A DNA stretch of 8,269 nt from contig JAFAPL010000087.1 of NCBI GenBank assembly GCA_019247135.1, positions 1-8,269 of the forward strand. Reading direction: 5' to 3'. Position numbers and translations under genes: made by a program. Source of the stretch: Chloroflexota bacterium (GTDB lineage: Bacteria > Chloroflexota > UBA6077 > CF-72). Below the pieces are notes generated by a model. It did not search any database. It saw only the letters and a program-made list of their open reading frames with translations, and was not told the origin of the DNA. Below, piece after piece: positions 1 through 8,269 of this stretch. How positions within the stretch are numbered: position 1 is the stretch's first letter; each line of letters begins with the position of its first letter.

Positions 1-583
1 CTCCCGGCGGGGATCCGTCAATTCCGTTGATGTTGTTCTCGGCGCAGAAAGGATGGCCATACCACGGATTGGTGCCCTGGAGTACCGGCGCGTTCGCGAG
101 CCACGGTTCAAACGGCTTATCACCCGCGCTCCAGCCCTGAAATAGCATTATCGCGACGTATATGCCATGGTCACGTGACTCAAGCACGCGAGTCCGCAGA
201 CGCTCGAACCAATCCTCATCAAACTGGGTCAGGTCGAACTTTCGTTTTCCGTCGCGGGCGATACCAGGCCCTGTGCGTGCCCATGGCAAGGGCTCAAAGT
301 AGTAATCGCCTTCCCACCACGATCCCCAGCGAGCGTTCTCCCAGTTCCACAAGCGCATGAAGTTATGCCCGTATTCGGTCATGAACGCTAACCATCCACG
401 CCAATCGAACGGAGATGGCGGATCAGCGATGCCCGCTTCCTGCAGGGTCGCCCACGTGTGCGAGCCGGCCAGCAGCAGAGGGCGCCCTAAAGCGTCGGCG
501 AAGTAGCGCGGATTCCTGGAGTCCACCCGCAACGGACCACGCGTGGGTGCCGATCGCTCCGTTCCGATTGGAGCCTCAGGCAT
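1..583 (-). CDS. Glycoside-hydrolase-like TIM-barrel protein (apiosidase-like/DUF4038 type), partial
   Basis: The reading frame is open from an ATG at 583 to the left edge, giving 194 N-terminal residues; the C-terminus lies outside the window. The N-terminus has the pattern GPLRVDSRNPRYFADALGRP followed by LLLAGSHTWATLQE, which resembles the opening strand of DUF4038/apiosidase-like and GH5-like barrels (a residue-then-GRP-then-LLLAG-then-W pattern). It then shows NFMRLWNWE, the usual second-strand region, and later a long surface loop with several Trp/Tyr residues (WWEGDYYFEPLPW) that looks like a carbohydrate-binding cleft. No signal peptide is visible, so a cytoplasmic enzyme is inferred. 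The ATG overlaps the stop of the upstream hydrolase gene by 8 bases (ATGCCTGA), so the two are probably translationally coupled in one operon. The catalytic acids would lie in the missing part, so activity cannot be confirmed; the family call rests on recalled motif similarity. Confidence 0.75.
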   Translation of the reverse strand, partial: MPEAPIGTERSAPTRGPLRVDSRNPRYFADALGRPLLLAGSHTWATLQEAGIADPPSPFDWRGWLAFMTEYGHNFMRLWNWENARWGSWWEGDYYFEPLPWARTGPGIARDGKRKFDLTQFDEDWFERLRTRVLESRDHGIYVAIMLFQGWSAGDKPFEPWLANAPVLQGTNPWYGHPFCAENNINGIDGSPPG

Positions 584-1514
584 CGTCGCCCAGATCAGCC
601 GTGCTCTCGGAGGACACAGCCTGGACCGAATGGTCTAGGCCGACCGTGCCATCCGGATGACGGTCGAAAAACCCCCAATCGTGGTGCGGAACGACTATGT
701 CAGCGTTCATTCGCATCCAGGCGTATGCCCGGATAACGGCCTCCACATCGAAAAAAGCGCCCATCGGCCAGTTCAGTTCGATGTTTTGATAGAAGGGCAC
801 CAAGTCGCCCGGGATACACACGCGTCCGACCTGCGTGTCGAGCAGGACCACCTGCGTACCGGGGCTATGGCCGCCTAGCAGGTGAACAGTAACCCCGTCG
901 GTGACCCGCAGATTCCCGTCCACGAGCTCTAGACGATCGCGGACATCGAGCAGATTGAACGCCATTTCGGGGTAGTAATAAAGCGCCCAACGTGGAGGAT
1001 GGATCGCGAGAGGAAGCTCTCGCTTTTGCACGATGAATGTGGCGTTCGTAAATCTGGTGTTGTTGCCAATATGATCGAAGTGACAGCAAGTATTGATTAC
1101 CACGTCGATGTCTGCGGGCTCAAGGCCAAAACGGGCAAGCTGTGCCTCGACCGTCCACTCTGGCCGACGGCGAGTCCAGATTGCGTGCTGGCGGAGGACG
1201 GAGCCCCCTATTGCGGGACTCTGCTCGCTCAGATCACACCCCGTGTCGACCACGATATTCAGGCCTGCTCCTTCGATTAGCCACATCGTCAGCGGCGAGC
1301 GAAGGCCCGCCATCTTGACATCGCCGAAGTCGAGTTCGTCCTCCCAACCGCACGGCCGGTGTTCGGGCTCGATCGTGAGATTCACTCCATGCAAGGCATA
1401 CGGCGCCGGCGCAGGTCCTGCCTCGTCGCCGAGAGGCAGTAGGTGTGCTCTTATCGTCGTTCGCGCGTCATCCACCCCATGACGTCCATCGTACGACCCC
1501 AACTGTTCTCGCAC
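576..1514 (-). CDS. Metallo-beta-lactamase-fold hydrolase, N-acyl homoserine lactonase-like family
   Basis: This 312-residue protein has the layout of the AHL-lactonase-like MBL branch (AiiA/AttM type), which hydrolyses lactones or related esters in the cytoplasm with two metal ions. Visible landmarks are WLIEG-then-VVDTGC (about 78-93), the metal motif region TCCHFDHIGNN (142-152), GGHSPGTQ (214-221, His216), PGD (235-237, Asp237) and VPHHD (275-279, His277 or His278). The first ligand of the usual HxHxDH motif is Cys143 instead of His; the other ligands are present. The GTG at 1514 gives the longest frame, but the AAGG run directly abuts it; in-frame TTG (codon 5) and GTG (codon 14) are alternatives, so the first about 14 residues are uncertain. 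It is the first gene of an operon with the glycosidase-like gene, and diverges from tetR. True substrate is unknown; quorum quenching is only one possibility. Confidence 0.88.
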   Translation of the reverse strand: MREQLGSYDGRHGVDDARTTIRAHLLPLGDEAGPAPAPYALHGVNLTIEPEHRPCGWEDELDFGDVKMAGLRSPLTMWLIEGAGLNIVVDTGCDLSEQSPAIGGSVLRQHAIWTRRRPEWTVEAQLARFGLEPADIDVVINTCCHFDHIGNNTRFTNATFIVQKRELPLAIHPPRWALYYYPEMAFNLLDVRDRLELVDGNLRVTDGVTVHLLGGHSPGTQVVLLDTQVGRVCIPGDLVPFYQNIELNWPMGAFFDVEAVIRAYAWMRMNADIVVPHHDWGFFDRHPDGTVGLDHSVQAVSSESTADLGDDA

Positions 1515-1538: not shown

Positions 1539-1566
1539 GGTCAGCCTTGACTGACCGCTGAGACAA
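1539..1566. promoter_or_regulatory. Candidate TetR operator between hydrolase operon and tetR
   Basis: Two overlapping signals are seen. First, a perfect 6-bp inverted repeat, GGTCAG (1539-1544) and CTGACC (1551-1556), with a 6-base spacer. Second, a 21-bp box at 1546-1566 read as CTTG-A-CTGACC-N5-GACAA, which recurs at 5299-5319 with all the fixed letters identical. The site covers the -35 and spacer of the tetR promoter and the first transcribed bases of the hydrolase operon, so a bound repressor would block both. Assignment to the adjacent TetR protein is inferred from position. Confidence 0.6.
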
Positions 1567-1576
1567 AGAGTATTAT
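1547..1576 (+). promoter_or_regulatory. Promoter of tetR
   Basis: TTGACT (1547-1552) and TATTAT (1571-1576) are separated by 18 bases and match the housekeeping sigma consensus closely. Transcription should begin at about 1583-1586, which coincides with the GTG start codon at 1586, so the transcript is predicted to be leaderless. No Shine-Dalgarno sequence precedes the GTG, which agrees with this. Confidence 0.7.
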
Positions 1577-1596
1577 GCGCGCCCAGTGGTTGTCAA
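1567..1596 (-). promoter_or_regulatory. Promoter of the hydrolase/glycosidase-like operon
   Basis: On the minus strand TTGACA (1596-1591) is followed after 18 bases by TACTCT (1572-1567). The lipoprotein gene has the same hexamers with the same spacing at 5372-5343. Its -35 lies inside the first codons of tetR, and its -10 shares two bases with the tetR -10, so the two promoters cannot be occupied together. The predicted start at about 1560 gives a leader of about 45 bases containing the inverted repeat. Confidence 0.6.
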
Positions 1597-2440
1597 GCGT
1601 GCGCAGTCCCAAGACGCGCCGTCGACTGGTGACCGACTGGATGGGCTACTCGTCGCCGCCTGTCGGATGATCGCGAGGTACGGAGCGCGCAAACTGAGCT
1701 TCCGTGACGTCGCAGAGGAAGCGGGCGTCTCGAAGGCACTAATCTCCTATTACTTCTCGGGGCGCAACGATCTGCTCGCGCGCGCGTACGAGTTCTCCGA
1801 CGACCGCGCGCGCGAGCGCGTCTCCGATGCGTTCGAGCCTGTCGAGTCAGGAGCAGTCCGTCTCTCCCGCGTGCTGGCGCTGTATCTAACTGATGATCCG
1901 AACATGCAAGAGGACTGGATCCTCTGGTCTGAGTTATCGTCTGCCGCGATGTTTGAGCCGGACCTCCGCCCGGTCATGGAGGCCTCGTTCGTGCGTTGGA
2001 CCGATTGGATTCGAGGCCTCGTACGGGATGCTGTCGAGGAGGGTTCTATCGATATCGGGGCCGACGCCGACAAGACCACGCTGCGCCTGGTGGCGCTCAC
2101 CGATGGACTAGGATCTCTTCTCGCCCGGGGATTGATCGAACGGGAGGCCGCGCGCGAAGTACTGGCTCAACACCTTGACGCCAGCCTTGGCCGAACCTCC
2201 CGCAGTTCCACCGAGGGCTCCTCACGCGCCGAGCCACCGGCGATCGGGTACATGCGGCTGCTCGCGTATCAATTGCAAAATGCGGTGGAACAGCTCGAGG
2301 GCTTGGCATCTACTTCCGCGGAGAGAGACGCGATCCAAACGGTGACCGAACTCATCAGATCTCGGACCGGCCAGCACAGCATGAACACCCCCTCAGGAGA
2401 GCGGTTAAACAAGCACGCCGAAAGACCGCCGTTGTCGTAA
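1586..2440 (+). CDS. TetR/AcrR-family transcriptional regulator with long C-terminal extension
   Basis: This 284-residue DNA-binding repressor-type protein has a typical TetR N-terminal domain: a first helix at about 17-32 (LDGLLVAACRMIARYG), then a helix-turn-helix at about 39-58 (FRDVAEEAGVSKALISYYFS) with the conserved turn glycine (Gly47) and the Tyr-Phe end of the recognition helix, then GRNDLL. The ligand domain (about 65-200) is acidic and helical, with tryptophans at DWILWSE and VRWTDWIRG. Most TetR proteins end near 190-220 residues; this one continues about 80 residues past a Ser/Arg-rich linker (about 203-215) into another predicted amphipathic helix region (YMRLLAYQLQNAVEQLEGL). 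The GTG start fits the TATTAT box 9 bases upstream and a leaderless message. It diverges from the hydrolase operon and is the likely reader of the boxes at 1546-1566 and 5299-5319. The inducer is not deducible. Confidence 0.92.
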   Translation: MVVKRAQSQDAPSTGDRLDGLLVAACRMIARYGARKLSFRDVAEEAGVSKALISYYFSGRNDLLARAYEFSDDRARERVSDAFEPVESGAVRLSRVLALYLTDDPNMQEDWILWSELSSAAMFEPDLRPVMEASFVRWTDWIRGLVRDAVEEGSIDIGADADKTTLRLVALTDGLGSLLARGLIEREAAREVLAQHLDASLGRTSRSSTEGSSRAEPPAIGYMRLLAYQLQNAVEQLEGLASTSAERDAIQTVTELIRSRTGQHSMNTPSGERLNKHAERPPLS

Positions 2441-2592
2441 GCGGGTGATCCTTCAAGTGGGGCGCGGGATCATCGCACGCGCAGATCCATACGCCGTCAG
2501 AGGAGCCGGGATCTGTGCCGATTCCGACCGCTAGCCCGCTGGCTGCTGGGCGCGACGGGGCCGAGTTGACGGCAGTCGGTCAGCCCTCAATT
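2441..2592. other. Convergent gap between tetR and the isomerase-like gene
   Basis: The two flanking genes end toward each other across 152 bases. A weak inverted repeat, CAGATCC (2482-2488) and GGATCTG (2509-2515), has a 20-base loop and no following T-run, so I do not call a terminator. No gene is seen here. Confidence 0.4.
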
Positions 2593-3594
2593 TCAATCGC
2601 CGGTTAGGGCCGCGTAGACAATCTCGTGGGCACGTACCGCGTCGTGGCCTGCGCGCGCTTCCTCCAGTGCCGCGTCGTCGATGCGCGACGCGATCTGCCC
2701 GAGCGCATGCCATTGCTCCACGCTCCGTCGAACGGCGGCGATTCCGTCCTCCGTGTAGGGATAGAGATCAAGGCCGAGCCGACCGCCTGAGCTTTCATAA
2801 GAGGAGCTTCGCAGATAGTGCGCGAGCTCCAAAGTCTCGATGAACTTCAGCGATCCTACCATCGTCTTGTCATCGAGCGTCCCCCATCCTGAGCTCGCAT
2901 GCATGTGCCCGAGCGCGCCATCGCGCTCGAGCAGAGCCGCGCATTCGGCAAGCCCTTCGCCGGTCATGAACACGTTCTGCCAGTCGAGATTGACCTTGAT
3001 GTTGGAGTGACCGCGTTCTCGGAGAACGCCAACCATATGTAAAGCGGTCGACACATTACGAAGCAGTACTTTCATCGCGGGCTCGGAGTTCTTCGGCTCC
3101 AACCACAGGTCTATGCCATGTCGCTGACACCGCGCAGCTGCTTCATCAAGCGCGTCGATCAGCAAATTCCAGGCTTCTTGGTACCGAATCTGAAATGGGT
3201 AGTTATAACCCTCGTTACCCGGCCAAATGATCACGTTCGCGCCCAATTCACCCGCGAGATCGATACATGCGAGCGTCCTTCGCAGCGCAGCAGCTCGAGT
3301 GGCAGGCTCTGGCGAGGTGAGACCGCCCCGAGCAAAATGCGGCTCAGGATGCAGCGCCGCGGCCAACACATAGATGTCGTGGTCGCCAAGGGCGATGCGA
3401 ACCTCGTCCAGGTTGTCCTCGTTGAGTGACTCGGGGTAGTAGAACTCGTAACCGTCCACGTACCCCTCCAGCCCTTCCACGGCGCGACTGACGCGCTGGG
3501 CCGTCGTCTCGCCGGCGAGTTCCGGCCGGTGGCCCCCGGGCACGAATCGCGTCACTAGCGGACCCAGGCTTCCAAGGGCTAGGCTCGTCTTCAT
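2593..3594 (-). CDS. Sugar phosphate isomerase/epimerase-like TIM-barrel protein (xylose isomerase-like)
   Basis: This 333-residue cytoplasmic protein belongs to the xylose-isomerase-like/AP-endonuclease-2 barrel group. Recognisable blocks are YEFYYPESLN (49-58), LHPEPHF (81-87), IIWPGNEGYNYPFQ (122-135, comparable to the WGGREG strand of XylA), LWLEPKNSEP (163-172, comparable to IEPKPNEP with metal ligand Glu166), VNLDWQNVFMTGE (201-213, Asp204 at the place of the second acidic ligand), GHMHASSGWGTLDD (229-242) and LDLYPYTED (275-283, Asp276 as a late ligand). The metal site therefore looks largely kept but differs from true XylA, notably His at the HMHA strand instead of Asp. Members of this group include isomerases, epimerases, dehydratase-like enzymes and C-deglycosidase subunits, so the exact reaction is open. 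The ATG at 3594 is the only good start; GGTGG lies 6 bases upstream. It follows the lipoprotein gene by 115 bases and is probably co-transcribed. Confidence 0.87.
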   Translation of the reverse strand: MKTSLALGSLGPLVTRFVPGGHRPELAGETTAQRVSRAVEGLEGYVDGYEFYYPESLNEDNLDEVRIALGDHDIYVLAAALHPEPHFARGGLTSPEPATRAAALRRTLACIDLAGELGANVIIWPGNEGYNYPFQIRYQEAWNLLIDALDEAAARCQRHGIDLWLEPKNSEPAMKVLLRNVSTALHMVGVLRERGHSNIKVNLDWQNVFMTGEGLAECAALLERDGALGHMHASSGWGTLDDKTMVGSLKFIETLELAHYLRSSSYESSGGRLGLDLYPYTEDGIAAVRRSVEQWHALGQIASRIDDAALEEARAGHDAVRAHEIVYAALTGD

Positions 3595-3709
3595 CCTCGG
3601 CCACCGCTACGCATACCACGTCGCTTCGCTGGAGTCACGCTCATCGGCGATCCACACATCTCCCGCATCCTATTCAGCAGCGGAAGTGCGTGATGACCCG
3701 CAGAGGAAG

Positions 3710-5287
3710 TCAGCTCACCCAGACGTCGGTGAAGGCCTTGCCGCCGAGCGGCCCGAGCGGAGATGGTCGCATGCCTCCGACGCGGTGGCCGACACCGTCG
3801 AGAATCGGGTAGAAGCCCCAGATCAGATAACCGCCCTCGTCCCACAGCAGCTTCTGGAGCTCGTTGTATAGATCTTGCTGTTTTGCCGAGTTCGATTCCG
3901 CCAGCACTTGATCATAAAGGCTCTGGAACCGGGCGTTATGCCAATGAGTTTCGTTAAAGGGAGCACCCTGCACAAGCGACTTCGCATAATGCGTGACCAG
4001 TGGCTCCGTAAACCATTCCGACTGAGCGAAGTTTTCCTTCAGGTAGACAGGCCCGAAGTAGATGGACGACGGCTGTTGATTGAGGCTCATCGTGACCCCC
4101 GCACCGGCCGCCTGACGCGCGAATACCGTCGCGGACTCGAGCATGCCCGTCGCAACAGTGGAGGTGTTCAGTGTGACGTGTAGACCTTCGCGACCGGCCG
4201 CTTTTAGCAGGTGTTTCGCCTGTTCCAAGTCTTGCGTGCGCTGGGGCAAAGCGGTGTCGTAATGTGGAAGATGTTTGCCATATATGTCGTTTCCGATGGT
4301 CCCGTACCCGCTCTGCGCTTCTTCGACGAGCTGGGGGCGGTTCGCGATCAGCCGCATAGCCTGGCGCACTCGCACGTCGCGGAATGGCTCCAAGTCAACG
4401 GCCATGTAGATCGGCACCATGTTCGACCCTTGAGCCTCGAGGACGCGGAACTGTTTTGACTGCTTTTGGCTGGTGGCCTGGGCGTAGCTAATGCTTTCGA
4501 TCGCGTCCACCTGGCCACCCAACAGCGCGTCGTATCGGGCGGTGGCATCGGGGATCGATACCAGCTCGAGCGTATCCACGTACGGTTTGCCGTGCTGCCA
4601 ATAGTTCTCATTGCGAGTAAACGTGCTGTACTGTCCTGGCTTCCACTTCACGAACTTGAACGGCCCGGTGCCTATCGGATGGTTGAAGCTCGTCGTCCCG
4701 TTCTTCACGATAGCCATATAGTCGAATGCAAAGAAATAAGGCAGCAGTGTGTTTGGCTGCGTGAGAGGGATGCGCAGCGTGAGCCGATCCAGCTTGCGAA
4801 TCCCATTCGCGTTGATGAAGTTGGCGATATAGAGACCGACGAGCCCGAGTTTAGGATTAGCAATTCGGCGCAAGGTGTAGATCACGTCGTCGGCGGTGAG
4901 AGGCGAGCCGTCGTGGAATGTCACGCCACTTCGTAGTCGAACGGTCCAAGCGTCGAATGCGGCGTTCGGTTCGAATGACTCTGCAAGGTAATGAGCAAGA
5001 GAAAGGTCTGGAGCCAGAGACACAAGGGGATCGAAAAGGTTCTCCGCTCGCGCATCATCGACGTCCGCCACCGGACCGTTGGGATCTAGAGTTTCACTCG
5101 ATCCGCCACCTATGAACGCAATCTTCAACGTTCCACCGCGCCGGGGACGAGCTGTTGTTGTGCTCTTTGACGTGCCGCCGCAAGCCCCGAGTGCGCCGAG
5201 CGCCAAACCTGCGCCAGCCCATGTTGCTCCCTTGACGAACTCGGCACGCGTCAGACGTCCATCACGCGGGGGTTCTGGTGAATCCAT
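3710..5287 (-). CDS. ABC transporter substrate-binding lipoprotein, family 5 (peptide/nickel/sugar type)
   Basis: The 525-residue product has a lipoprotein signal: a basic N-region with TRAEFVKGA (13-21), a hydrophobic stretch, then the lipobox LGAC with Cys36 as the lipidated residue. TRAEFVK resembles a Tat motif with the second arginine replaced by alanine. The mature part shows the family-5 pattern: RRGGTLKIAF (start of the fold), LDPNGPVADVDDARAENLFD, then LAESFEPN, WTVRLRSGVTFHDGSPLTAD and GTGPFKFVKW, each standard in DppA/OppA-type proteins. It should capture an extracellular solute at the membrane face. The ATG at 5287 is preferred over an in-frame GTG at 5299 because GAGGA ends 5 bases before the ATG. 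No ABC permease or ATPase genes are in the window, so it is an orphan here. Its promoter and a TetR-box candidate lie directly upstream. Substrate specificity within the family is not readable from sequence; the nearby isomerase suggests a sugar-containing solute. Confidence 0.93.
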   Translation of the reverse strand: MDSPEPPRDGRLTRAEFVKGATWAGAGLALGALGACGGTSKSTTTARPRRGGTLKIAFIGGGSSETLDPNGPVADVDDARAENLFDPLVSLAPDLSLAHYLAESFEPNAAFDAWTVRLRSGVTFHDGSPLTADDVIYTLRRIANPKLGLVGLYIANFINANGIRKLDRLTLRIPLTQPNTLLPYFFAFDYMAIVKNGTTSFNHPIGTGPFKFVKWKPGQYSTFTRNENYWQHGKPYVDTLELVSIPDATARYDALLGGQVDAIESISYAQATSQKQSKQFRVLEAQGSNMVPIYMAVDLEPFRDVRVRQAMRLIANRPQLVEEAQSGYGTIGNDIYGKHLPHYDTALPQRTQDLEQAKHLLKAAGREGLHVTLNTSTVATGMLESATVFARQAAGAGVTMSLNQQPSSIYFGPVYLKENFAQSEWFTEPLVTHYAKSLVQGAPFNETHWHNARFQSLYDQVLAESNSAKQQDLYNELQKLLWDEGGYLIWGFYPILDGVGHRVGGMRPSPLGPLGGKAFTDVWVS

Positions 5288-5292
5288 CTCTT

Positions 5293-5297
5293 TCCTC
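5293..5297 (-). promoter_or_regulatory. Ribosome binding site of the lipoprotein gene
   Basis: GAGGA on the minus strand lies 5 bases before the ATG at 5287. It supports that ATG over the in-frame GTG at 5299, which overlaps the operator-like repeat. Confidence 0.7.
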
Positions 5298-5298
5298 A

Positions 5299-5320
5299 CT
5301 TGTCTGACCTACCGGACAAG
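5299..5320. promoter_or_regulatory. Candidate TetR operator in the lipoprotein-gene leader
   Basis: The 22-bp element has perfect outer arms, CTTGTC (5299-5304) and GACAAG (5315-5320), and contains the box CTTG-T-CTGACC-N5-GACAA at 5299-5319. This matches the site at 1546-1566 at all 15 fixed positions, with differences only in the six variable ones. It sits between the predicted transcription start (about 5336) and the ribosome binding site, a roadblock position. That TetR binds it is inferred. Confidence 0.6.
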
Positions 5321-5342: not shown

Positions 5343-5372
5343 AGAGTATCTCTGCGTGCCGTGCTCTGTCAA
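5343..5372 (-). promoter_or_regulatory. Promoter of the lipoprotein/isomerase operon
   Basis: Minus-strand TTGACA (5372-5367) and TACTCT (5348-5343) are separated by 18 bases, the same hexamers and spacing as the hydrolase-operon promoter at 1567-1596. The predicted start near 5336 gives a leader of about 49 bases that includes the operator-like repeat. Confidence 0.65.
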
Positions 5373-5854: not shown

Positions 5855-7345
5855 TCATCTTCCGCCGCTGGCTCCTGTGGCCGCAACCTCGACTTCGGTG
5901 CGCTCGCCTTCGTCCATCGCCCTGCCTGCCAGGGTGAGCCATTCCTCTCGGCCGCGTGAGCGTAGGTAAATCAACACCACCACGCAGACAGCAAGCCAGA
6001 CGGCGAGCACGATCGGAGCGTACTTCTCCGGCGCGGCCGGGAGGGGCACAACCGTCTTGTAGAACACGATCCCTACGGCAATGGACGAGGCGATGGGAAA
6101 GATCAGGTGCTTGATCGGGTTGAAATCGGGCCGCCGCTTCCACCCGTAGAACAGCATCACGCCGATATTCGCGAGGATGTACAGGACAATCAGTCCGAGT
6201 GTGATCGTCGTTGCCCAGGTGAGATACGTGTCAGCCGGACCGAAAATCACGGCCAGCGTGAACGCAAGCGCGCTTGTGGCAACGGTCAGATGAATTGCGT
6301 TATCCGGCGTGTGACGCGTTCTAGCAACCCGCCCGAGGGCGCGCGGCAAAGCTCCGCTTCGCCCCATGCCAAACCAGGTCCGCGTCGCGCCGTTAAAGCA
6401 CGCCACCGATACCGCAATCGCGGAGTTAATCAGCGCAAACAGGATCACAACCCAGGCGCCATGCCAGACGCGGACCGCAACCGTGAAGCCAGGAAATGCG
6501 GACGCCGTGGCAATGCTCCCGACCTTCGCGGTACCAAACCCAATCAGCAGGCCCCACGTCACAAACAGCAGGTAGGCGCCGAAGATCACGACCGAGAGAA
6601 CGAGGGCACGTGGGACGTTACGTCTCGGTTCCCTGCTCTCCTCCGCGATGGGCCCCACCGCCTCCCAGCCGCTGAACGCGAAAATCGAAAACACGAAGCC
6701 CAGAAACAGGTTCGGCGCGGCACTGAAATGAGAGGGATTAAATGGCTGACCATTGAACCCTCCGGCGCCTGGGGAGACCATCCCGGAAATCGCCAGCGCA
6801 ACCATAATTACCATTTCGAGAATGCCGGTGATCAAGAGCACGCGGCCAGAGAGGACAATTCCCCGGTAGGCGACGAATATGACGATCGCCATCCCCGCCA
6901 AGGTGTAAACCCACCACGGAATATTCACGCCGTACTGACTGTTGATCGAAGGCTGCAGGACTTCTTTTGACAGGAAGGCGAACGTCAGCGCCGCCGTCGG
7001 GGGCAGCCAAATGGACCACAGCCAACCGCCTACGAATCCCGCGCGGGGATGAAATGAACGAGCAATCCACGTATACCAGCCCCCGGCCGACGGAATCGCC
7101 TTTGCAAGTTGGCTAACGGAGACGCTGAGCATTAGCACAACCAGCATCGCGAAGAAGAACGCCAGTGGTGCGACAATGCCCGCGTTCCCGACGGTCGCCT
7201 GGAAGGTCGCGAGAATCGCGTAGGCGGGCGCAATCGTCGCGATGCCCTGCATCATTACCGCGGGCAAGCCGAGCGCGTCCCTCATGAGTCCGGGCCCTCG
7301 CTCCTGTGGAGCCGTGGTTGCGGCTTGCGAAACCGCTTCACTCAT
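5855..7345 (-). CDS. APC-superfamily amino acid/amine permease
   Basis: This 496-residue inner-membrane protein has about 12 hydrophobic segments and hydrophilic ends, as in the amino acid-polyamine-organocation family of proton- or sodium-coupled uptake systems. Family marks are GIATIAPAYAI (34-44, unwound first segment), AIPSAGGWYTWIAR (83-96), the FSGWE sequence (224-228) followed by IAEESREPRRNVPRA (233-247), and a late charged loop FYGWKRRPDFNPIKH. The C-terminal about 30 residues are acidic and soluble. The ATG at 7345 is chosen because a perfect AGGAGG ends 6 bases before it; a frame extending 11 codons upstream (to 7378) lacks such a site. The gene diverges from the trimethylamine-dehydrogenase-like gene, which suggests import of an amino acid, betaine or amine that this flavoenzyme or the neighbours then process. 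The exact substrate cannot be assigned. Confidence 0.93.
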   Translation of the reverse strand: MSEAVSQAATTAPQERGPGLMRDALGLPAVMMQGIATIAPAYAILATFQATVGNAGIVAPLAFFFAMLVVLMLSVSVSQLAKAIPSAGGWYTWIARSFHPRAGFVGGWLWSIWLPPTAALTFAFLSKEVLQPSINSQYGVNIPWWVYTLAGMAIVIFVAYRGIVLSGRVLLITGILEMVIMVALAISGMVSPGAGGFNGQPFNPSHFSAAPNLFLGFVFSIFAFSGWEAVGPIAEESREPRRNVPRALVLSVVIFGAYLLFVTWGLLIGFGTAKVGSIATASAFPGFTVAVRVWHGAWVVILFALINSAIAVSVACFNGATRTWFGMGRSGALPRALGRVARTRHTPDNAIHLTVATSALAFTLAVIFGPADTYLTWATTITLGLIVLYILANIGVMLFYGWKRRPDFNPIKHLIFPIASSIAVGIVFYKTVVPLPAAPEKYAPIVLAVWLAVCVVVLIYLRSRGREEWLTLAGRAMDEGERTEVEVAATGASGGR

Positions 7346-7351
7346 CGATCT

Positions 7352-7357
7352 CCTCCT
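7352..7357 (-). promoter_or_regulatory. Strong ribosome binding site of the permease gene
   Basis: AGGAGG on the minus strand, followed by a 6-base spacer and the ATG at 7345. It is the best Shine-Dalgarno match in the window and fixes the permease start. Confidence 0.85.

Positions 7358-8269
<912 letters not shown>

What the first reader, a model, noticed from the sequence alone, without database searches (positions are those of the whole stretch)
1546..5319. A shared 21-bp box links tetR, the hydrolase operon and the lipoprotein operon
CTTG-N-CTGACC-N5-GACAA occurs at 1546-1566 and 5299-5319, with 15 identical fixed bases and only the six spacer positions differing. Both copies sit beside TTGACA-N18-TACTCT promoters. 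A TetR gene lies next to one copy, so a local regulon with a new operator sequence is the simplest reading. This would define the genes that belong to one catabolic system.
Basis: partly seen in the sequence, partly recalled or inferred. Interest (0 to 1): 0.78.

Follow-up and report, generated by a model that had tools for sequence, protein, structure and literature searches.

The report
A TetR repressor's two operator boxes
Two nearly matching DNA boxes in this bacterial sequence look like docking sites for the repressor protein encoded beside one of them, a common kind of gene switch that here probably controls two neighbouring operons.

Summary
The boxes are real and exact. Each is the core of a 22-bp imperfect palindrome: S1 (1546-1567) between tetR and the divergent hydrolase operon, S2 (5299-5320) just before the solute-binding-lipoprotein operon. 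The raw match (15 of 21) is unremarkable in this window; other tests carry the case. A palindromic matrix from either box ranks the other as the best remaining of 8,248 positions. The exact pattern has 1 hit in 399 genomes of one class (Thermoleophilia by the record title of G002's locus). The S1+S2 matrix finds a palindrome at the TetR start in 23 of 27 relatives' loci. A motif learned from those 27 loci alone, without the window, converges on the same TGACTgac..gtcAGTCA-type sites and ranks S1 first and S2 second in the window. The operator region seems conserved before a 69%-identical TetR gene. So an autoregulatory operator at S1 is very likely, and control of the lipoprotein operon through S2 is likely. 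The operator is not new in kind: it is a diverged copy of a subfamily operator akin to published TetR sites. Binding is unshown, the host genome was unavailable, the effector unknown.

The parts
1546..1567 (.). Operator S1: 22-bp imperfect palindrome in the tetR / hydrolase divergent promoter region
   Evidence: exact box; rank 1 of 8248 with a motif learned without the window; 21 of 22 bases compatible with the orthologue's upstream translation
5299..5320 (.). Operator S2: 22-bp imperfect palindrome (arms CTTGTC/GACAAG) between promoter and start of the lipoprotein gene
   Evidence: exact box; inverted repeat; predicted from S1 as best other position; rank 2 of 8248 with a motif learned without the window
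1547..1576 (+). tetR promoter-like site TTGACT-N18-TATTAT; its -35 lies inside S1; transcript probably leaderless or nearly so (inference)
   Evidence: sequence
1567..1596 (-). hydrolase-operon promoter-like site TTGACA-N18-TACTCT (scan: N16-AATACT); -10 abuts S1
5343..5372 (-). lipoprotein-operon promoter-like site TTGACA-N18-TACTCT (scan: N16-GATACT)
1586..2440 (+). tetR: TetR_N + BetI-type C-terminal domain (PF13977), with a C-terminal helical extension
576..1514 (-). metallo-beta-lactamase-fold hydrolase (lactonase-like), first gene of the divergent operon
2..583 (-). cut-off gene downstream of the hydrolase, overlapping it by 8 bp; weak DUF6298 match below the curated cut-off
3710..5299 (-). 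family 5 extracellular solute-binding protein (SBP_bac_5), lipoprotein-like; likely start is the ATG at 5287 (by eye), so S2 lies upstream of it
2593..3594 (-). xylose-isomerase-like TIM barrel (AP_endonuc_2), downstream of the lipoprotein gene

Best explanation
S1 and S2 are operators of the TetR-family regulator encoded at 1586-2440. A TetR dimer binds the 22-bp palindrome S1, which covers the tetR -35 box and abuts the -10 of the divergent hydrolase operon, and so represses both (autoregulation). The same protein binds S2, downstream of the lipoprotein-operon promoter and before the gene's start, and blocks that operon. An unknown small effector, possibly the imported solute or a breakdown product, releases the dimer. 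Shown by computation: the boxes, their symmetry, their positions, and an operator of the same register beside relatives of this TetR gene. Inferred: physical binding, repression rather than activation, S2 as a target of this protein, and the effector.
For: Exact boxes. A matrix from S2 alone ranks S1 best of the other positions (15.3, next 9.3) and the reverse (14.9, next 13.3). The exact pattern has 1 hit in 399 genomes, reversed control 0. The S1+S2 matrix finds a site of at least 10 near the TetR start in 23 of 27 relatives' loci, each the best site of its locus, against 16 of 1,197 overlapping segments elsewhere in the same loci and 10 of 540 simulated segments. A palindromic motif learned from the 27 loci with no input from the window recovers the same 24 sites (those 23 plus L077) and ranks S1 1st (16.0) and S2 2nd (7.0, next 3.5) of 8,248 window positions. 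Orthologue P0002's N-terminal extension matches the window's operator-region translation at 9 of 19 residues; 0 of 20,000 permutations reach this. Exact contig-length matches suggest that tetR and the lipoprotein gene share a contig in 3 other assemblies, against a control mean of 0.15 (0.017 for contigs of at least 4 kb).
Against: No binding data. The host genome is not held. With the matrix, S2 scores only 2.2, below the mean best score of shuffled windows (3.5, 60 shuffles; 95% point 10.1); the 95% point for the matrix was not computed. In the second leave-one-out test the margin is small (14.9 against 13.3). Both boxes carry TTGTC half-sites, whereas relatives' position 5 is A in 47 of 48 half-sites. 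4 of 27 relatives' loci fall below the threshold (L063, L077 at 9.9, L081, L082), and L081, the one relative in which I saw a divergent solute-binding gene, has no such palindrome. 7 of 41 remote TetR loci also reach 10, among them TGACTG-type palindromes at L053 and L054 and a near one at L018, so the operator type is not exclusive to the subfamily. With no matrix at all, the most self-complementary 22-mer carries TGACT or AGTCA in only 16 of 27 loci. The relatives are related, so the counts are not independent events.
Confidence: 0.8

Rival explanations
1. S1 is the autoregulatory TetR operator, but S2 is a chance or unrelated resemblance, so the TetR does not control the lipoprotein operon.
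For: S2's absolute score with the matrix is low (2.2 against a mean shuffled maximum of 3.5); 15-of-21 pairs are common in the window. In 25 relatives' genomes the operator pattern with up to one mismatch gives 81 places against 54 for its reversed control (sums rows, recounted), an excess of about the number of autoregulatory sites.
Against: S2 is the best other position predicted from S1 and ranks 2nd with a motif learned without the window; it is a palindrome in the right register directly before a gene start; inferred tetR-lipoprotein linkage in 3 other contigs. Several relatives' genomes (G152, G197, G217, G219, G286) hold further perfect palindromes away from the tetR locus, so second targets are plausible there.
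Confidence: 0.14
2. The boxes are sites for a different, non-local regulator, and the neighbouring TetR is incidental.
For: The host genome could not be scanned, so the full set of sites is unknown.
Against: The palindrome sits beside relatives of the TetR gene that have different neighbours; 1 exact box in 399 genomes.
Confidence: 0.04
3. The similarity only reflects shared promoter elements or chance.
For: The left half of S1 contains the tetR -35 TTGACT; raw identity is unremarkable.
Against: S2 is not at a -35; the symmetry and the relatives' sites extend beyond promoter hexamers; single hit in 399 genomes.
Confidence: 0.02

Closest known systems
SbtR (TTHA0167) of Thermus thermophilus, TetR family; consensus TGACTGGCCAGTCA (PMC4948773, passages seen)
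   Same: TetR protein; palindrome built from TGACTG half-sites; the site listed for TTHA1315/TTHA1316 reads TGACTGACCGGTCA
   Different: TGACTG arms are 2 bp apart there, 6 bp in the subfamily here; the window's boxes have TTGTC half-sites. The published change TGACTG to TGTCTG in one arm weakens SbtR about 10-fold (KD 2.2e-9 against 2.2e-10 M, Table 2 passage)
Autoregulated TetR-family local repressors with divergent targets (TetR/tetO type; recalled, no call)
   Same: Palindromic operator overlapping divergent promoters
   Different: A second operator lies before a separate operon about 3.7 kb away; effector unknown
BetI-type choline-responsive repressors (TIGR03384)
   Same: BetI-type C-terminal domain; Foldseek hits include 4kwa, a Saccharomonospora viridis regulator solved with choline
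   Different: Far below the BetI curated cut-off (46.9 against 201.3 bits); no choline gene was recognised among the window proteins scanned

Membership tests
TetR family of regulators | TetR_N helix-turn-helix domain and TetR fold | tested here: met
   PF00440 46.2 bits, cut-off 24; model matches 2g3b, TM 0.88 normalised by target
TetR family of regulators | binds a palindromic operator as a dimer | tested here: inconclusive
   palindromes present and conserved beside relatives; binding not testable with these tools
Autoregulated local TetR repressor | operator-like palindrome in the divergent promoter region of its own gene | tested here: met
   S1 overlaps the tetR -35 and abuts the hydrolase -10
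Autoregulated local TetR repressor | represses, relieved by an effector | not testable with these tools
   needs an experiment
BetI (choline repressor, equivalog) | score above the curated cut-off | tested here: not met
   46.9 bits against 201.3
AiiA-type N-acyl homoserine lactonase (hydrolase gene) | score above the curated cut-off | tested here: not met
   68.2 bits against 375
SbtR-type operator | TGACYR-N2-YRGTCA, 14-bp spacing | tested here: not met
   similar half-site, but the subfamily sites have 6 bp between the TGACTG arms

The most novel reading that the evidence does not exclude
This TetR clade may have undergone a natural switch of operator specificity. Residue 54, in the model's recognition helix (helix 50-56), is His in all 27 relatives' loci L059-L085 and in the 16 other orthologues P0003-P0018, but Ser in the window and Asp in its closest orthologue P0002. 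The window has, and P0002 is compatible with, a TTGTC half-site on one side where relatives have TGACT (position 5 A in 47 of 48 half-sites). If causal, this is a compact natural case of protein-operator co-evolution. Against it: operators of the 16 other orthologues are unseen, and the 12 Streptomycetaceae relatives have Tyr (11) or Ser (L012) at this residue while some of them have TGACT/AGTCA-type sites (L011, L015, L016), so His is not needed for TGACT.
Probability: 0.22. Interest if true: 0.5.

Novelty: new member of a known kind. Interest (0 to 1): 0.36.

Why it matters
It ties an undescribed hydrolase operon and a solute-binding-protein operon to one regulator and gives a testable operator for a TetR subfamily spread through Thermoleophilia (25 of 399 genomes sampled). 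My five literature searches surfaced no characterised operator from this class, but none was aimed at the class by name. The residue-54 and half-site correlation is a small, directly testable case of operator specificity.

Tried and rejected
The genome-contig scan for the TetR alignment gave 58 loci, with relatives of at most about 40% identity over most of the protein and none of the 46-69% orthologues (contigs under 3 kb are not held). Searching 399 genomes for the hydrolase gave 3 with copies at 43-51%. Family and order searches around them gave the same 2 of 103 and 2 of 129; 0 of 3 handles and 0 of 232 in another order. The regions fetched around the three copies hold none of the other six window proteins at E 1e-3, so these distant copies do not show the same neighbourhood. 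One search scored at most 6 candidates per genome, so relatives may have been missed there. Plasmid records gave only weak TetR matches, none covering 80% of the query.

Contig-length matching is indirect. It used 17 of 21 TetR hits (own entry P0001 and three weak hits P0019-P0021 dropped), 64 of 65 hydrolase hits (own entry dropped) and 119 of 1,093 lipoprotein hits (the listed 120 less the window's own). Results: 3 tetR-lipoprotein matches; 0 tetR-hydrolase matches; 1 hydrolase-lipoprotein match (20,561 bp; control mean 0.43, or 0.12 for contigs of at least 4 kb), which is weak.

Rejected: the palindrome at 7610-7631 (S3) as a third operator. It scores -1.2 with the S1+S2 matrix, ranks 9th with the matrix and 4th with the window-free motif (3.4); it scored well only when put into the matrix itself. 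Rejected: raw 15-of-21 identity as evidence. Rejected: hit L092 as a regulon member (inside a 439-aa ORF). The extension of hydrolase P0034 was looked at for an operator trace and is too uncertain to use. The family matrix was built from sites chosen with the window matrix and so is partly circular; one search was run to remove that. Literature: five searches, seen as listings, showed no paper evidently about this regulator; passages of PMC4948773 and PMC7022988 were seen, no whole paper.
Full report
What is there. The window (61% G+C) carries on the minus strand a lactonase-like metallo-beta-lactamase hydrolase (576-1514) followed by a cut-off gene overlapping it by 8 bp (2-583); on the plus strand a TetR gene (1586-2440); on the minus strand a family 5 solute-binding protein (3710-5299) followed by a xylose-isomerase-like TIM barrel (2593-3594), and an amino-acid permease (5855-7378); and on the plus strand part of an FMN oxidoreductase. 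Extended by one base, each is a 22-bp imperfect palindrome: S1 CTTGACTGACCGCTGAGACAAA and S2 CTTGTCTGACCTACCGGACAAG.

Is it more than chance? Alone, 15 of 21 shared bases is weak: the window holds 2,675 pair counts of 21-mers at least that similar (inverted counted twice). Fairer tests are positive. Leave-one-out: a palindromic matrix from S2's half-sites ranks S1 second of 8,248, after S2 itself (15.3, next 9.3); a matrix from S1 ranks S2 second after S1 (14.9, next 13.3, a small margin). Rarity: the exact pattern occurs once in 399 genomes of the class of G002 (whose contig is titled Thermoleophilia), reversed control 0; that hit lies within a 439-aa ORF.

Relatives. 25 of 399 genomes have a TetR relative at E <= 1e-25, the best at 39% identity. 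In the 27 loci L059-L085 (these 25 genomes, G197 twice, plus a weaker second locus of G004) the matrix built from S1 and S2 alone finds a site of at least 10 centred from -38 to +20 of the estimated TetR start in 23 of 27, each the top site of its locus. They are palindromes of the general type TGACTgac..gtcAGTCA, some with one arm altered (L062, L067, L068, L069). Background: 16 of 1,197 overlapping segments elsewhere in these loci and 10 of 540 simulated segments. Below threshold: L077 (9.9, same type), L063, L081, L082. Of 12 Streptomycetaceae loci 6 reach 10, two of them (L013, L014) at +48, inside the gene; of 41 remote TetR loci 7 do, among them TGACTG-type palindromes at L053 and L054 and a near one at L018. 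The relatives are not independent of one another.

The reverse test. A matrix from 24 relatives' sites ranks S1 first (14.7) and S2 second (2.2) in the window, but those sites had been chosen with the window matrix, S2's score is below the mean shuffled maximum (3.5), and only S1 passes the 95% point (10.1). I therefore learned a palindromic motif from the 27 loci with no input from the window. It converges on the same 24 sites (those 23 plus L077) and ranks S1 first (16.0) and S2 second (7.0; third 3.5) of 8,248 positions. Without any matrix, the most self-complementary 22-mer carries TGACT or AGTCA in 16 of 27 loci.

A trace in an orthologue. Besides the window's own entry the protein database gave 17 relatives at E of 1.1e-25 or better, 16 of them 46-69% and P0018 41% identical, and three weak hits. 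P0002 (69%) has an N-terminal extension that lines up with the in-frame translation of the window's operator region (window SALTDR*DKEYYA, P0002 SGLTDRGDKYYYG within the stretch) at 9 of 19 residues. None of 20,000 permutations reaches this, and of 16,424 places in the window 1, the site itself, does. 21 of 22 bases of S1 are compatible with P0002's residues; at 12 of the 22 the residue allows a single base, and 11 of those 12 match, the exception lying in the box's N5 spacer. As the window's frame has a stop there, this looks like conserved operator DNA rather than protein. Part of it may be promoter conservation, since S1 overlaps the tetR -35.

Linkage. The orthologues' DNA could not be fetched. 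The three compare with a control mean of 0.15 per offset (0.017 for contigs of at least 4 kb); the fourth is weak (0.43; 0.12); no tetR-hydrolase match was seen. This is inference from lengths, not from seen sequence.

Mechanism. S1 contains the tetR -35 and abuts the hydrolase -10; S2 lies between the lipoprotein -10 and the gene start. A dimer at S1 would block both divergent promoters, and at S2 would block the start or passage of the polymerase. In the 25 relatives' genomes the pattern TGACTG-N6-CAGTCA with up to one mismatch gives 81 places against 54 for the reversed control (sums). The excess is about the number of autoregulatory sites, which fits local regulators, but G152, G197, G217, G219 and G286 hold further perfect palindromes elsewhere, so wider regulons or similar paralogues are not excluded. 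Neighbours vary: of 6 adjacent proteins that I picked from the 27 loci because they looked coding, 3 are Rieske oxygenases, 1 aminomethyltransferase-type, 1 decarboxylase and 1 solute-binding protein. The BetI-type domain and Foldseek hits to Saccharomonospora viridis structures solved with choline and other small amines hint at an amine effector but prove nothing; BetI membership fails its cut-off.

Relation to known systems. SbtR of Thermus thermophilus binds TGACTGGCCAGTCA, and an A-to-T change at the third base, the change seen in the window's half-sites, weakens binding about ten-fold (PMC4948773, passages). The half-site class is therefore known; spacing and sequence here differ. The window protein and P0002 differ from the 27 relatives and the 16 other orthologues at residue 54 of the recognition helix (Ser/Asp instead of His); Streptomycetaceae relatives with Tyr there count against a simple rule.

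Verdict. The regulon reading is likely (0.8), strongest for S1. The operator is a new member of a known kind. On checking, I lowered the probability of the novel case from 0.25 to 0.22 because of the Streptomycetaceae residues.

Noticed in passing
window 7610-7631: Another strong palindrome (TCTTGCTGTCCGGACAGGACGA) just downstream of a TTGACA seen by eye (not listed by the promoter scan) before the permease gene; it fits the box poorly and may serve a different regulator.
   Followed up: partly
window 7557-8269, + strand: The FMN oxidoreductase (OYE-like) reading frame is split between two frames around 7814-7895, so the gene is broken or the sequence has an error there; described only.
   Followed up: no
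window 576-583: The hydrolase stop and the next gene's start overlap by 8 bp, suggesting translational coupling.
   Followed up: no
window 1586-2440 (residues about 220-261): The TetR has a C-terminal extension with two predicted helices beyond the usual TetR fold, present in 16 of the 18 aligned rows (absent from P0011 and P0018); function unknown.
   Followed up: partly
L060, L061, L075: TetR relatives lie divergent to Rieske-type oxygenase genes with the operator palindrome between them.
   Followed up: partly
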